Part shown: piece by piece, positions 34,810 to 41,003 of the stretch
How the letters are laid out: every line of letters starts with the position of its first letter
Numbering within the stretch: the first letter of the stretch is position 1
DNA from: Phytophthora sp. 'mugwort'
Taxonomy: Eukaryota > Oomycota > Peronosporomycetes > Peronosporales > Peronosporaceae
Direction: 5' to 3'
Assembly (NCBI GenBank): GCA_033558025.1
Contig: JAUCEF010000012.1
Location: 186,001 to 250,000 of the forward strand
Length of the DNA: 64,000 bases
Program-made: the position numbers and the translations under genes
Notes under the pieces: model-generated
Database searches by the model: none
Told to the model about the DNA's origin: nothing
The model's input: only the letters and a program-made list of their open reading frames with translations

Positions 34810-35770
34810 TCGACTACACCATTGCCCGACCTATTTGGAAAGAAATGCAAGCAAAGTGAACAAAAAACCGAACTGGCGTTGACTTTGCAGCAGATATTAT
34901 GTCCCGTAGTGCGTATCCTTGTTGTCCTTAGCCGAGTTAAGTGCGTCACGATAATGGAGTTTCATCTGCGTAACCAGGGTAGGGGTTATGCAGCAAAGAC
35001 TTTCAATCGCGGAGCGCACAAGGAAGCGCTTTCTGAAATTGCCAATGAATTATCATCAGCATCGGTTATGTTCGCCCGGTCACAAACTGATTCGAGATCT
35101 ACCGCTAGATGGTCTTTGATGCGCGCCTTAATGCCCGAAGCACCCTTCGATAGCGTTGCACATCGGCGGATATGGACCCAGGCGTAGTAGAGCCAAATCA
35201 TCGATGAGTTCCTCGGTTTGGCGATGTGCGGGGCCGTTACCGAGAACAATGACGATTTTTCGTGTAAGTAAAATGCTCGCGGAAATTTTCGGATGTCTTG
35301 GCCGTGCGGTAAACCTCGCCGATAAAGGCAGCATTTTATTCTATCCTGATGCTACCGCGTCCGAATCGGTGCAACACACGACCCATTGATGAATTCAAAG
35401 CGCATTGCACTTGAAGATTTGCAACATCAGAAATCGAGAGCATCACAACAGTCATTTTCTCTTTCTTACGAGTTATCATATTTACTGTAAGAGGGGCCCA
35501 AGTCCTCGGCCTCTCTTACAGTAAATGTGATAAACTCGTCTCGCTAAGCAGATGGCGACAAATCATTGATGTAAAGAGAGTAAGTCCCGTGTCATAACTC
35601 AGCATAGTCCCGATCCGCTCCAGCATATACGCGCAGTTGTCGTTCAAGTATTCTTCGAGTCTCTCCGTCACCTTTATCGTTACTTTCGTGACACTAGCAC
35701 GGGCGCCTCCGCGAGGCCTGATTTCGACCGAGTCTTGGGCACAATGCGGTATGCCATCGAACAGTTGATG
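34810..35770 (-). pseudogene. Tc1/mariner-like transposase (DDE_3), decayed
   Basis: Minus strand from about 35760: VTERLEEYLNDNCAYMLERI then SMICRHLL (N-terminal HTH region), then a hairpin insertion at 35469-35538. Next come VIVLGNGPAHRQTEELIDDL near 35190-35260 (Asp of V-L-D-N-x-P-A-H changed to Gly here) and LRLGPYPPMCNAIEGCFGH near 35130-35185 with the catalytic Glu. A tail block ARIKDHLAVDLESVCDR follows near 35065-35115. The first catalytic Asp region appears deleted. Clearly inactive. Confidence 0.75.
35469..35538. repeat. Long hairpin inserted in the Tc1/mariner relic
   Basis: The arms share CGAGTTATCATATTTACTGT and the complement of a nearly identical sequence ending near 35538, with only small differences, around a GC-rich centre of about 10 bases. 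It interrupts the transposase directly after the HTH block. A minimal palindromic MITE is the simplest reading. Confidence 0.75.
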
Positions 35771-36066
35771 TCGATATTCATAGCACTACTAGCCAGTCAG
35801 CACGCCCAGCGCAATACTCGAGTACGCGCTGCTTCTCGTAGATTGTTGGCTTGCGGTAGGTGGCTTGGGAGGGCTTTTGTCAAAGCTGGAGGATTGAGAG
35901 ATGAAAGTTTGGCACTCAAGCACTCGAAGGCAACTGAGTGCGCGCATTTGGGCGGGAACTCATCCCCACCACTCCACAATCACATGCTGCCATATGGTTT
36001 TGGCGGGAGTGCAGAAATCTGTTCGGTTTGGTTGCTGTTGCTCGCGTTGGTTGCTAATTACCGTCC
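35771..36066. other. Spacer left of the virus-like element
   Basis: Probably the 5' flank of the Tc1/mariner relic. No gene seen. Confidence 0.35.
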
Positions 36067-36377
36067 TGCAAGCGTAAAATACCACTACTGAAGCAACGGT
36101 ATATTATCCGCTGCTAGTAGTGGTTTTCAGTACACAATCGGGGCTGTTTTTATAATTCCATCTGGATGTACTCAAACAATTATTAACCCATGAATTAGCA
36201 AAGTGATAAAACCCTATATAATTTAGGCAGCCCCTGTCGATAGCCAATATGCAAAGAGATATATTTTTTGTTCTCAAAAGGTCCTGATAGCGAAGTATGT
36301 AAAGCTGCATAGGTTAGTGAATATAAGATATAATATTTTGTCTATATATAGACGTTCCATCCTGATAGATAAATATA
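36067..36377 (+). repeat. Left terminal inverted repeat of the virus-like element
   Basis: The reverse complement matches 39458-39779 in long blocks, for example TTCGCTATCAGGACCTTTTG (near 36283-36302 and 39567-39586), GCATATTGGCTATCGACAGG and GACGTTCCAT at the inner side. The outer edge is around CTTGCAG. Many substitutions between the arms show the insertion is old. Confidence 0.9.
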
Positions 36378-36830
36378 AAGGTATAAAATATAATGAAAGG
36401 ATTCATATACATAAGATTTCGAACAAAGACAATTTTATCGTCTTCATTGGGAGCTCAACCAAACCACACAGTTATACTGGAATGATGTTAGAGGTAATTA
36501 TACCGCATGGTTAAGAACTGGCAAGTCGTTTCGTACAATTTATGGACATTTTAAAAAACGATGGGGTCGATAGTTTTGATATAAATTGATCAGCGAGCAT
36601 GAGATCACAAAAAGTATCGATATCTATGAGCATAAGCAAGTGGCTATAAACAATACCAAATGCATAAACAACCGCGAGCATTCATTCGAATTGGGGAAGA
36701 GAAGCTCAAAACAAAAATTCTCCAGAAGAGTACGACCCGAGAAGAAAGATTCCATGTGAATGCGGCTCGATATTTAGTCGATGCAATAAGGGTAAGCTAC
36801 TCGAAGTGATTAAGCTAACAATTCTGAATT
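36317..36830 (+). pseudogene. GIY-YIG-like endonuclease with zinc-ribbon tail
   Basis: The open start (36317) reads DNFIVFIGSSTKP, like the second half of the GIY...YIGST core, preceded by a decayed first half. After a shift, GNYTAWLRTGKSFRTI and then MDILKNDG near 36540-36560 fit the helical part after the core. The tail IPCECGSIF then NK near 36750-36785 fits the C-x-C-G-S zinc-ribbon end seen on small GIY-YIG nucleases of large and Polinton-like DNA viruses. At least three frame changes. It overlaps the inner end of the left TIR by about 60 bases. Confidence 0.5.
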
Positions 36831-36961
36831 TCATGATAATTTATGAATTTCACAGGATTCCTCTGAGTTTCATAATTATATTATTTCTTTATCAAAAAAA
36901 ATGAGAGGCTATGTATACACCCAACCGATAACATGTCGAGCGAACTAACTTCTGGAAAATA

Positions 36962-37035
36962 CAATAACCAGGATCAAAAGTATATACTTCATCGAAAAAA
37001 ATCGATGGAGTATATACTTCTGATCCTGGTTATTG
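36962..37035. terminator. Near-perfect 34-bp stem hairpin between convergent genes
   Basis: Arms 36962-36995 and 37002-37035 are reverse complements with two mismatches around A6. It lies between plus-strand gene debris on the left and the small plus-strand gene and capsid 3' end on the right. In giant viruses and virophages, transcripts end at such hairpins, so a 3'-end signal is a reasonable inference; a palindromic MITE is the alternative. Confidence 0.6.
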
Positions 37036-37112
37036 TCGATGGATATTCAACCAACCCAATCTAAATATTAGTGAGGAAATCAGGATATTCCTCCACTCCA
37101 AGTTTCGAAGCG

Positions 37113-37250
37113 ATGATAACTCATACGATGACTTGGGGCAATTATCGCGGTAAGACCCTCAAGCAGATTAGCCGAATCGATTCGAACTATATCGATTGAC
37201 TTCGTAAGAGTCAATTTGTTATTGAGAAGTGTCCTAAAGAACTTTAAGAA
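37113..37250 (+). pseudogene. Small DUF3820-like protein
   Basis: From ATG 37113 or 37128 the frame reads MTWGNYRGKTLKQISRIDSN and YID, then a stop in place of the usual Trp, then LRKSQFVIEKCPKE. This is the compact pattern (mpFGkykGk-l-eI...Y-xWL) of DUF3820-type small domains found in viruses and phages. About 40-45 codons; function unknown. Confidence 0.45.
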
Positions 37251-37275
37251 TTGAACTAAGCTACTGAGTTATTAT

Positions 37276-38858
37276 CTAAGCGGTGGTATAATCGATTACT
37301 TCCCCTGTAAGACGATCATAGCTTAGCTCCTGCTCGCTCACCACAAGGACCAACATATTGGTGCCCTGGCATCCAGCTGTCGTGCCCTGGACCTGAATCG
37401 CCTGCGGAACATCACGCTCCGTTAGGCGGCTAACGTCAGCAATGAGAACGCGGTTAGTCAGCGACCATACCTGGTAATCAAGAAGACCACCACGAGCTCA
37501 GGAGTCAGATCAGTTAATTGAAGCGATTTTCGCAATCTCGTTTGTGAAGTGGCGAAATCATAGTCATGACTGATGTCGAAGGTTTGGTGGGAGCCAATGC
37601 GAACATTGAAGTTGCGGATACTCGAACCAGGGTGGAGCGTCTAGGGAGCCGAATCAAAAGGATTTTGAAACTTCTGTACAGCAGCAGAAGCGCAATTACC
37701 AGTCTGCTCAGCGAAAGGGAGGAGAATGACATATTTAGCATTCTAACAGAAGCTGATAATTGTAAATCGAAAGCAGCATTGTGTGTGAGGGTTCCCAAGA
37801 TGGACGAACGGTACATAAACACGAGAAGTGGTGAAAGGCATATAAGTACCATCCATTGAAGGTTCAAGGGTATTGAGGACAGCACCCCAAGCAATACTGA
37901 ACCAGGCATAAGCAGCAAGGACACCAGCCATGGGATTACCAGTCGATGAAGCAGAAACCATCACCGGACAGGTATTGCCACTTGCGAAAGTAGTGCTGGT
38001 GAGAGACATACCCTTCGATGCGTCGACAGCAAATAGTGGAAGTACCCTGGTTGACACGGAAGCGTAGACGGATATGAGGGTTCACCGTGAGGTCTAGCTC
38101 CTTGAAAATGGGATGTAGATCAGTTAGCTTGATCCTGAGCATGTAGTTCCACGTTCCCATGATCGCGTTAGTAGTAGCAGCACCAGCTACGAAGGCACCA
38201 CGCGCCAATTGATTTGATATTGTAGTAGAAGCTGCAGCCACACCAAGTGAAGGCCACGACGTGGAGAAATCAGATCCAGCGTTAGGAGGGTTCGACAACA
38301 GACGCATTACAAGACCATCATTAATGATATAGGCACCACCAGATGGGCCAGTAGTAGCAAACGAAGATGAGAAGGCAATAGTATTAATGTAACCATCTCC
38401 CGTAGTAGATAATGTATCAGAACTATACAAGCTGACTGAGTGGCATCCGGATAAAGAAACGACTCAGCTCCATTGAGGACTGTAGCTTGTCTGAGCTCGG
38501 ATATTGTTTCAAATCAGCTTGTAATCAGCCATACTCACAACAGTCTTCCCGTTGAGTTCAAGCGACATGCTATCGATTACATTCCAGTTACCGCATTTGA
38601 GCGTAGAGCAGAAGCGGTTAGCTGGTAGCGTATGGGCAGTACTACCGTTCTTCATCGAGACATTGTACGGTAGCACGATGTAGGCATCGCGAAGACAAGC
38701 GAATCCTTCATTCCCATTCAGCTGGGCAGTAGCATCAATAGTATGACACCATTCTGATACGATCCCTGATTCTCGCTTACCAGAAGATACCTTGATCTCC
38801 GGGTCGCTCTTGAGCGAGCTCTGGTACAAATATTGGTCGGATAGTTGAGTTCGCTCAT
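37276..38858 (-). pseudogene. Capsid-like protein (probable double-jelly-roll MCP)
   Basis: Minus-strand blocks are collinear over 1.58 kb, about 520 codons. They start at ATG 38858 (MSELNYPTN), then DPEIKVSSGKRESGI, DAYIVLPYNVSM and VIDSMSLELNGKTVVSMADY at 38520-38830. Next are FSTSWPSLGVAAAS, MGTWNYMLRIKLTDLHPIFK and RLRFRVNQGTST at 38050-38430. Then SASSTGNPMAGVLAAYAW and YVPFVHLGNPH at 37770-37960, FDSAP and HPGSSIRNFNVRIGSHQTFD at 37560-37680. The end is VPQAIQVQGT and LSYDRLTGEVIDYT before stop 37276. Length, Ser/Thr/Gly-rich beta composition and neighbours fit the major capsid protein of Polinton-like viruses or virophages. About five frame changes and one internal stop. Confidence 0.65.
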
Positions 38859-38870
38859 CGTTGAATCTAT

Positions 38871-39289
38871 ATGGATTCTAATATACTTTCATCGAAATTA
38901 AATACTATGGCTCATCTCATTAAGCCAATCACCAGCGATCATGATCTAATTGAATTTGCGGATCGATTAGGAGTCCATCTGGATAATATATTCGAATCGA
39001 GAAAAAATATCAAAACCGATCCCAAAGCAAGGTACGTACTTGGTCTTAATGAGGACTCCTAACCTTGATATAGGACACTGGCAAGCGGTACACGATGGCG
39101 AAATTTTCGACTCGACGGGCGAAGCAGCTCCGACAAAGTATGGAATCGTTAGATTCAACCCTAAAACAATATCAAGGAGCATACGGTAATTAGTGTGGTA
39201 TATGGTGCATGCTTTGGATATACTGCAAACAAAAAAATAAAATGCATCTATTAGATCGATTTAAAGACTTATATTTAATCATTCTTTAA
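38871..39289 (+). pseudogene. Adenain/Ulp1-like maturation cysteine protease
   Basis: The start is ATG 38871 or 38907 (MAHLIKPITSDHDLIEFADR). After a shift near 39030 the frame reads YLVLMRTPNLDIGHWQAVHD. Catalytic-type His is in GHW at 39076-39078, followed by EIFDSTGEAAPTKYGI with the acidic residue. After another shift and an in-frame TAG at 39191, the motif CGIWCML has the catalytic-type Cys at 39194-39196, then a stop at 39287. The order His, Asp, Cys with FDS and CGxxC spacing is that of adenovirus-type proteases of Polintons and virophages, which cut capsid precursors. Broken in this copy; it diverges from the capsid gene. Confidence 0.7.
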
Positions 39290-39320
39290 ATAAAATCAGT
39301 CATGAAATATAATAATAATA

Positions 39321-39548
39321 ATGGCGTTCAAAGAGTTACCAGTTTCATTGTCAAACGGCCACTTACAGATGGATCGATCTTTAAGCATTACCTCGAGTGT
39401 TGGATGCTTTGAGTTGAAACTTAACTTATTCATTGTTATGGTCATTATAACTTCATATTTACTATCAGGGATGGAACGTCTTTATAGTTTTGATCCTGAT
39501 ATTTGGATAACTTCATATAGGCAAAATATGGTATCTTATATTTATTAA
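39321..39548 (+). CDS. Short ORF entering the right TIR, unassigned
   Basis: A 75-codon open frame starts with MAFKELPVSLSNGHLQMDRS. Its second half is TIR sequence, so the frame is probably the cut start of a longer gene or chance. It would be the next gene after the protease. Confidence 0.3.
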   Translation: MAFKELPVSLSNGHLQMDRSLSITSSVGCFELKLNLFIVMVIITSYLLSGMERLYSFDPDIWITSYRQNMVSYIY

Positions 39549-39779
39549 TTTATGCACCTTTACATATTTCGCTATCAGGACCTTTTGAGAACAAAACCTA
39601 TGTCTCTTTGCATATTGGCTATCGACAGGGACTGCCTAAATTATATAGGATTTTATCCCTTTGCTAATTTATGGGTTAAACATTGTTTTAGTACATCCAA
39701 AATAAACTATAAAAAACATCCCCGATTGTGTACTGTAAGCCACTATTGCTGCTTCAACAGTGTATTGTTTAGCTTGCAG
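39458..39779 (-). repeat. Right terminal inverted repeat of the virus-like element
   Basis: Inverted partner of 36067-36377; both arms carry the same frame (CILAIDR-CLNYIGFY), simply because the DNA is the same. The outer edge is near CTTGCAGT at 39773-39780. No clear target duplication is visible beyond either arm. Confidence 0.9.
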
Positions 39780-41003
39780 TTCGATACGACTGTTCATTTG
39801 TTGCATTTGAGACTGTATCAAATACCGTGATTCTACCGCACCATTTAGAGTTATTGAGATATCCTCCTCTAAAGTTAGTGGAGCAAAAAACTGAACTTAT
39901 CATACATTTTTCAGGAGGGCAAGTTTTTCCCGTGGGGTGGTTCACTTAGCTGTATTGGCTGATAACAAGGGGAGCAGTGGAAGAGCTTGCGCGCGTCAGT
40001 CTCTTCGTGGCGGAAGGCGTTGAATTTGCGGTCGACAGCGACCCCGAGAGCGCCACTGTCTGTAGCGGGGAGAGGACTCGGGAGACGGTTTCCAACAAGA
40101 CTAGATGACTGTGTCGTCTTGCGAGGGGGGGGGCTCTAGTGAGGCTGAGTCGCTTGATGAGGACACAAGCACCAATTCGTTCAGCGCTGATCTACAGGAA
40201 GCAATCCGGCCTCTTGTAGCAGCGGATTCTTGCTAGCCACGCAGCCTACGCGGAAAAAAGAAGTTGTAGGGCGACTTCATCTGCTCCGTATGACAAATGA
40301 CCAATGATGAGCGAAAGAAGAGCATTTTGACGGTGTTAGCCGTGTTGCGCGAGGCGGACTCAGCAGTACGCAGCAGAGAAAGAGAAATCTTCTTTTCCTA
40401 TCTGCCGTAGTCTATCGACGCAAAGCGGAACGCCAGGGTTGTACCCTGCGATATTGTTGCCCAACTGAAGCAGGGAGAGCGCACCAGAAAGCGAGCTCGC
40501 AAGGCTTTAATGTAGACGAGTCGGATCGGTTTAAAACATTTTGCTTCTTGCGTCATCACAGTCGAACGAAATGATCCTGCTCATTTCTGGATTACTGCAC
40601 TGCCGAAAACAAAGTGTGACCTTGCACCCAAAACGAGAACGGGAAGTAGCCTGAATTATCGTGCGTGAGTAGGCGCAATCGATTCCCTGGGAAAAGACCA
40701 TTCGATTGACCCAAAATTTATTTTGTGATTAGTTTGGGGAGAATAAATATTCAGGAGTCTGTCACACTGCCGATATGCAATGAGGAGACGCCCCTATTTA
40801 CGACGGTTGTGCTCAAATCGCAAAACGTACTTAGGTTCGGTAGAATCCGGTGTTTGACGAGGTCTCATTTCTTTCCAAATAGGTGAGTAGTGGTGTTCCG
40901 TGTGCGACATCAAGCGAGGCGGGCCATGTTTCGAGGCACTCGCTTCAAAAAATAATGGGAAAATCCCTCGTATAGTCAGTTCAAGATTTGCCATGGAGAG
41001 CCC
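39780..41003. other. Spacer with possible decayed coding sequence
   Basis: Plus frames at 40105-40510 (SEAESLDEDTSTNSFSADLQ; MTNDERKKSILTVLAVLREA) look coding-like with breaks. Position upstream of the DDE_1 transposase suggests element debris. Not recognised. Confidence 0.3.

What the first reader, a model, noticed from the sequence alone, without database searches (positions are those of the whole stretch)
36067..39779. Miniature TIR-bounded virus-like element with capsid, protease and nuclease relics
Seen: inverted repeats of more than 300 bases enclose only 3.7 kb, with relics of four genes including a capsid-like gene and an adenain-type protease. Known: this gene pair and long TIRs define Polintons, Polinton-like viruses, adintoviruses and virophages, which are normally about 14-30 kb. 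Inference: either an internally deleted derivative that kept its morphogenesis genes and was mobilised in trans, or a compact type not yet described in oomycetes. It stands out from every other element here.
Basis: partly seen in the sequence, partly recalled or inferred. Interest (0 to 1): 0.95.

Follow-up and report, generated by a model that had tools for sequence, protein, structure and literature searches.

The report
Internally deleted, decayed oomycete Polinton copy
The 3.6-kb element is one broken copy of a virus-like transposon (Polinton/Maverick) that lost about 14 kb from its middle; long relatives sit elsewhere in the same genome, so it is not a new miniature virus.

Summary
A 3,632-bp unit (36116-39747) is bounded by inverted repeats of about 230 bp (204 of 232 aligned positions identical) and by a perfect 6-bp target duplication, GCTGCT (36110-36115 / 39748-39753). 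It carries relics of four genes: GIY-YIG-like (weakly identified), ExoX-C-like, a double-jelly-roll capsid gene and an adenain-type protease.

It is not a compact new type. 36116-39354 is colinear with the left 3.4 kb, and 39358-39747 with the right end, of 16-18 kb elements in the same genome. Pieces of those elements and their kin encode a packaging ATPase, family-B DNA polymerase, integrase with chromodomain and S74-type fibre. One deletion of about 13.9 kb explains the small size. Only this locus spans the junction among 40 scored of 96 candidate matches. Two other short copies carry different deletions. The capsid family is widespread in Phytophthora, and such oomycete elements are in print (PMC7805220, PMC10120064; passages read). 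Verdict: an ordinary deletion derivative of a known kind. Open: whether the deletion came before or after insertion.

The parts
36110..36115 (.). left copy of target site duplication GCTGCT
   Evidence: identical to 39748-39753
36116..36347 (+). left terminal inverted repeat, begins AGTAGTGG
   Evidence: family of 43 scored loci
36415..36809 (+). GIY-YIG-like gene relic (weakly identified)
   Evidence: colinear with L015:593-925; no Pfam hit; 28% over 53 aa to the GIY-YIG protein of L009, E 1e-5
36933..37250 (+). relic of a small gene with ExoX-like_C repeats; interrupted by a private inverted duplication at 36961-37036
   Evidence: colinear with other copies; homologous frame L018:2090-2407 has PF20600, E 7.8e-21; window pieces alone give no Pfam hit; hairpin comparison
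37276..38877 (-). capsid gene relic in four open pieces; about 92 bp are missing at 37786-37789 relative to other copies
   Evidence: fold of homologue P0015:
38907..39250 (+). adenain-type cysteine protease relic, catalytic boxes in two frames with a TAG
   Evidence: fold of homologue P0121:
39322..39354 (+). first codons (MAFKELPVS..) of the next gene, cut by the deletion
39355..39357 (.). junction of the large internal deletion (about 13.9 kb relative to the C8 copy)
   Evidence: blocks end at 39354 and restart at 39358; junction sequence; spanned by no other scored locus
39358..39514 (-). right-end inner region with the start of a small minus-strand gene
   Evidence: matches right ends of C1, C8, C3, C14a, C14b copies
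39515..39747 (-). right terminal inverted repeat
39748..39753 (.). right copy of target site duplication GCTGCT

Best explanation
It is a dead copy of a Polinton/Maverick-type endogenous virus of a Phytophthora-like oomycete. Shown: the unit has inverted repeats and a 6-bp target duplication, lies near the end of a 1.4-kb repeat element, and matches both ends of 16-18 kb elements of the same genome with the middle 13.9 kb missing. Inferred: a full-length element was copied by its own DNA polymerase and inserted by its own rve integrase. After insertion, end joining at short shared sequence (GTTTCATC stands at both breakpoints) removed the block with packaging ATPase, fibre, integrase and polymerase. 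The remaining genes decayed by stops, frame shifts, a 92-bp deletion and a small inverted duplication. It most likely does nothing now.
For: Colinearity with both ends of long copies; 6-of-6 duplication and empty-site alignment; junction found only here, 39 of 39 other scored matches break at it; two further short copies with other deletions; Polinton genes in long copies and kin; capsid homologue like mavirus and Sputnik capsids; protease homologue like adenovirus proteinase; stops and frame shifts in the relics.
Against: The two arms differ by K2P 0.132, about the median between arms of different elements (0.127), and are not sisters in the arm tree, unlike C1, C3 and C14a; internal regions differ from the nearest copies only by 0.04-0.08. 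If arms are identical at insertion, this does not fit a simple single-copy history. An intact duplication is also expected if an already shortened unit was inserted. Only 40 of 96 junction candidates were scored.
Confidence: 0.75

Rival explanations
1. The deletion came before insertion: a defective genome arose during replication, perhaps by recombination of two relatives, and was inserted as a 3.6-kb unit by enzymes of an intact element (mobilised in trans).
For: Perfect duplication around the short form; arms as different as arms of different elements and not sisters; capsid and polymerase frames of full length exist in the genome, so helpers are conceivable.
Against: No other scored locus has this junction; short copies L015 and L016 have other junctions; no breakpoint of recombination seen; the non-deleted C8 copy also has unlike arms (0.105).
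Confidence: 0.18
2. Assembly error: a long copy was collapsed to 3.6 kb.
For: Repeats of this kind are hard to assemble; reads cannot be checked here.
Against: The junction has bases belonging to neither parent breakpoint, and the sequence differs from every fetched copy by several percent on both sides.
Confidence: 0.04
3. A compact autonomous virus type with only capsid, protease and nuclease.
For: Complete-looking ends and duplication.
Against: The cut gene start at 39322-39354 and the colinear long copies; all genes broken; single copy.
Confidence: 0.02
4. An unrelated transposon that caught host gene fragments.
For: None found.
Against: The same gene order stands between the same repeats in long virus-like copies; capsid homologue folds like mavirus capsid.
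Confidence: 0.01

Closest known systems
Integrated Polinton/PLV elements of oomycetes with the Gossevirus (GKS1) group capsid (PMC7805220, PMC10120064; passages read)
   Same: Host group, inverted repeats, short target duplication, capsid plus protease; long copies here also have rve integrase and family-B polymerase.
   Different: This copy is 3.6 kb, lacks the middle genes and is broken. Its capsid was not compared directly with Gossevirus sequences.
Partial Polintons on contig 2.45 of Phytophthora parasitica (PMC8204020; passages read)
   Same: Short Polinton remnants, listed there with 164 to 6,016 bp.
   Different: There listed by RepBase match without borders; here both ends, duplication and deletion junction are defined.
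Mavirus and Sputnik virophages
   Same: Capsid homologue has mavirus as best solved match, Sputnik among the next.
   Different: Any dependence on a giant virus is untested.
Non-autonomous DNA transposons and MITEs (general knowledge, recalled)
   Same: Ends kept, middle lost.
   Different: No amplified family: the junction is spanned by this locus alone among the scored matches.

Membership tests
Polinton/Maverick (as a lineage) | Long terminal inverted repeats | tested here: met
   204 of 232 identical; shared with 16-18 kb copies
Polinton/Maverick (as a lineage) | Short target duplication of about 6 bp | tested here: met
   6 of 6 here; C3 6 of 6, C8 5 of 6, C14b 5 of 6, C1 4 of 6, C14a not readable because its flanks are reverse complements
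Polinton/Maverick (as a lineage) | Double-jelly-roll capsid gene | tested here: met
Polinton/Maverick (as a lineage) | Adenain-type protease | tested here: met
Polinton/Maverick (as a lineage) | Packaging ATPase, rve integrase, family-B polymerase in the long relatives | tested here: met
   Pox_A32 above cut-off; rve E 2.6e-7, 31.3 bits, just below its cut-off 32.6; DNA_pol_B_2 24.6 bits, just below 25.8, supported by homologues named DNA-directed DNA polymerase
Polinton/Maverick (autonomous element) | These genes inside the 3.6-kb element itself | tested here: not met
   Colinearity shows the whole block missing
Polinton/Maverick (autonomous element) | Size of about 14-30 kb | tested here: not met
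   3,632 bp
Gossevirus (GKS1) group | Capsid groups with Gossevirus capsids | not tested
   Inferred from host group (PMC10120064 passage) and from P. infestans homologues
Trans-mobilised miniature family | Several loci with the same deletion junction | tested here: not met
   1 of 40 scored matches spans it, the window itself; 96 candidates in all
Virophage | Depends on a giant virus | not testable with these tools
   Needs infection experiments

The most novel reading that the evidence does not exclude
A defective Polinton genome, shortened and perhaps recombined while replicating as free DNA, was carried by an intact relative and inserted as a 3.6-kb unit: a Polinton counterpart of a defective interfering genome, still holding capsid and protease genes when it landed.
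Probability: 0.15. Interest if true: 0.5.

Novelty: new member of a known kind. Interest (0 to 1): 0.15.

Why it matters
It replaces a claimed new virus type with a simple account. The useful by-product is that this genome holds many copies of one Polinton family at different stages of decay, with three different internal deletions among six paired copies. With other isolates this would allow a test of whether such deletions arise before or after insertion.

Tried and rejected
Direct profile searches of the window's own pieces gave nothing usable: Pfam, 10 pieces, only two hits, both below cut-off; Pfam, 5 window pieces (one repeated), no family; PHROGs, 6 pieces, only weak hits to families of unknown function, best E 0.04; PDB by sequence, one capsid piece, nothing. 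A profile of 32 capsid homologues against PDB sequences gave only chance matches such as haemoglobin and S18. A profile of the protease alignment gave weak matches to CdiA domains and one fimbrial usher entry, best E 0.0094. Foldseek with the protease model had no E <= 0.001. IMG/VR scan with the capsid alignment: 14 pattern matches, none confirmed.

Considered and dropped: the hairpin at 36961-37036 as a conserved signal (13 of 14 loci tried could be compared; none has this inverted duplication, though L009 and L022 have insertions of their own there). Arm divergence as a clock, because arms differ more than internal regions do between copies. A chimera of two elements: no breakpoint seen, left open. 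A minor capsid gene in the long copies: one piece tried, no Pfam family, so I do not claim it. Paper searches for Polinton deletion derivatives: listings only; no listed title is about this, which is no proof of absence.

A long polymerase frame (L064) gave no Pfam family at E <= 0.01, only an unrelated weak zinc-ribbon hit at E <= 1 and no PDB match; PHROGs found an endonuclease VII part in it but no polymerase. The polymerase label rests and on motifs named from memory.

Full report
The observation. The window is G000:C12:186001-250000 of an 86.3-Mb genome in 154 contigs. The inverted repeats are present; aligned, 204 of 232 positions are identical. The borders are 36116 and 39747, set by a 6-bp duplication GCTGCT on both sides. 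Joined with a single GCTGCT, the flanks align with the ends of three members of a 1.4-kb inverted-repeat element that have no insert there (L026-L028). The element thus sits about 50 bp from the end of that repeat.

What it is. The repeat occurs at 43 loci, the union of two searches that each scored 40, of 75 and 74 candidates. Six convergent pairs lie within 30 kb; their match positions are 3.4 (this one), 6.0, 7.0, 15.5, 17.4 and 18.1 kb apart. Comparison with the other five pairs: in C1, C8, C3 and C14a the stretch from 36116 towards 39354 matches the left part, with gaps, and 39358-39747 the right end; C14b has its own deletion from inside the capsid gene on. Against the C8 copy the missing block is about 13.9 kb (from coordinates). 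GTTTCATC stands at both parental breakpoints, and a few junction bases belong to neither. The next gene after the protease is cut after its first codons.

One deletion, not a family. A query across the junction gave 40 scored matches of 96 candidates: only the window spans it, and the other 39 end at query base 147 or before, or start at 149 or after. The two other short copies have other main deletions, about 11.5 kb and 10.1 kb relative to the C8 copy. So three of six paired copies are shortened, each differently.

Age and arms. The arms of this copy differ by K2P 0.132; those of the others by 0.026 (C1), 0.105 (C8), 0.044 (C3), 0.026 (C14a) and 0.063 (C14b). In a tree of 43 arms the two arms of C1, C3 and C14a are sisters; those of this copy, C8 and C14b are not, with weak support. 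Left and right arms do not form two groups (median K2P left-left 0.133, right-right 0.127, left-right 0.127; 19 left, 17 right, 7 unlabelled). Internal regions differ from the nearest copies by 0.04-0.08. The arms are therefore no simple clock, and a recombined origin is not excluded.

Known or new. PMC7805220 (passages) describes 15 elements in oomycetes, some with inverted repeats and 5-7 bp duplications, some with rve integrase and polymerase, and assigns the missing P. infestans Polinton capsid to the Gossevirus group. PMC10120064 (passages) reports up to 299 capsid copies in one oomycete genome, in Gossevirus clusters. PMC3671162 (passages) notes GIY-YIG genes in Phytophthora polintons. 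PMC8204020 (passages) lists Polinton stretches of 164 to 6,016 bp on one P. parasitica contig. A broken, shortened copy is thus expected. I did not compare the capsid directly with Gossevirus sequences.

Conclusion. An ordinary, internally deleted Polinton copy. Whether it was shortened before or after insertion stays open; the lack of siblings with this junction favours after.

Noticed in passing
34815-36107 and just after 39753: The left flank is a 1.4-kb inverted-repeat element with relatives on C11, C12 and C1 (L026-L028, about 75-96% identical in pieces); the Polinton copy is nested about 50 bp from its end.
   Followed up: partly
39803-40600: The right flank belongs to another repeat; 11 further matches at 70-81% identity in the genome. 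Its nature was not worked out.
   Followed up: no
36961-37036: A 35-bp-arm hairpin with 6-nt loop, created by an inverted duplication private to this copy; L009 and L022 carry insertions of their own at the same place.
   Followed up: yes
L009, L021, L022, L023: A second form of left end: the inner right-end sequence (homologue of 39358-39515) follows the left repeat, so the repeat is about 390 bp, and part of the GIY-YIG-like region is missing.
   Followed up: no
L015 (G000:C14:2797800-2804500): The two flanks of this 6.3-kb copy are reverse complements of each other, as in a fold-back or inverted duplication.
   Followed up: no
L064:1501-3126: The polymerase frame also holds an endonuclease VII-like stretch (PHROG 1035, E 1.1e-7) just before the region with polymerase motifs (motifs recalled); seen also as a weak Pfam hit in L012:4494-5060.
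   Followed up: partly
Phytophthora proteins P0168, P0178, P0183, P0222: Gene models that join this polymerase to PF20147, which the source name of P0183 calls a Crinkler effector N-terminal domain. Real fusions or annotation errors were not told apart.
   Followed up: no
G000, several contigs: A more distant subfamily (75-81% identical DNA in the capsid region) keeps capsid frames of 585 codons without a stop in the match at six listed loci; 150 of 299 candidates were scored.
   Followed up: no
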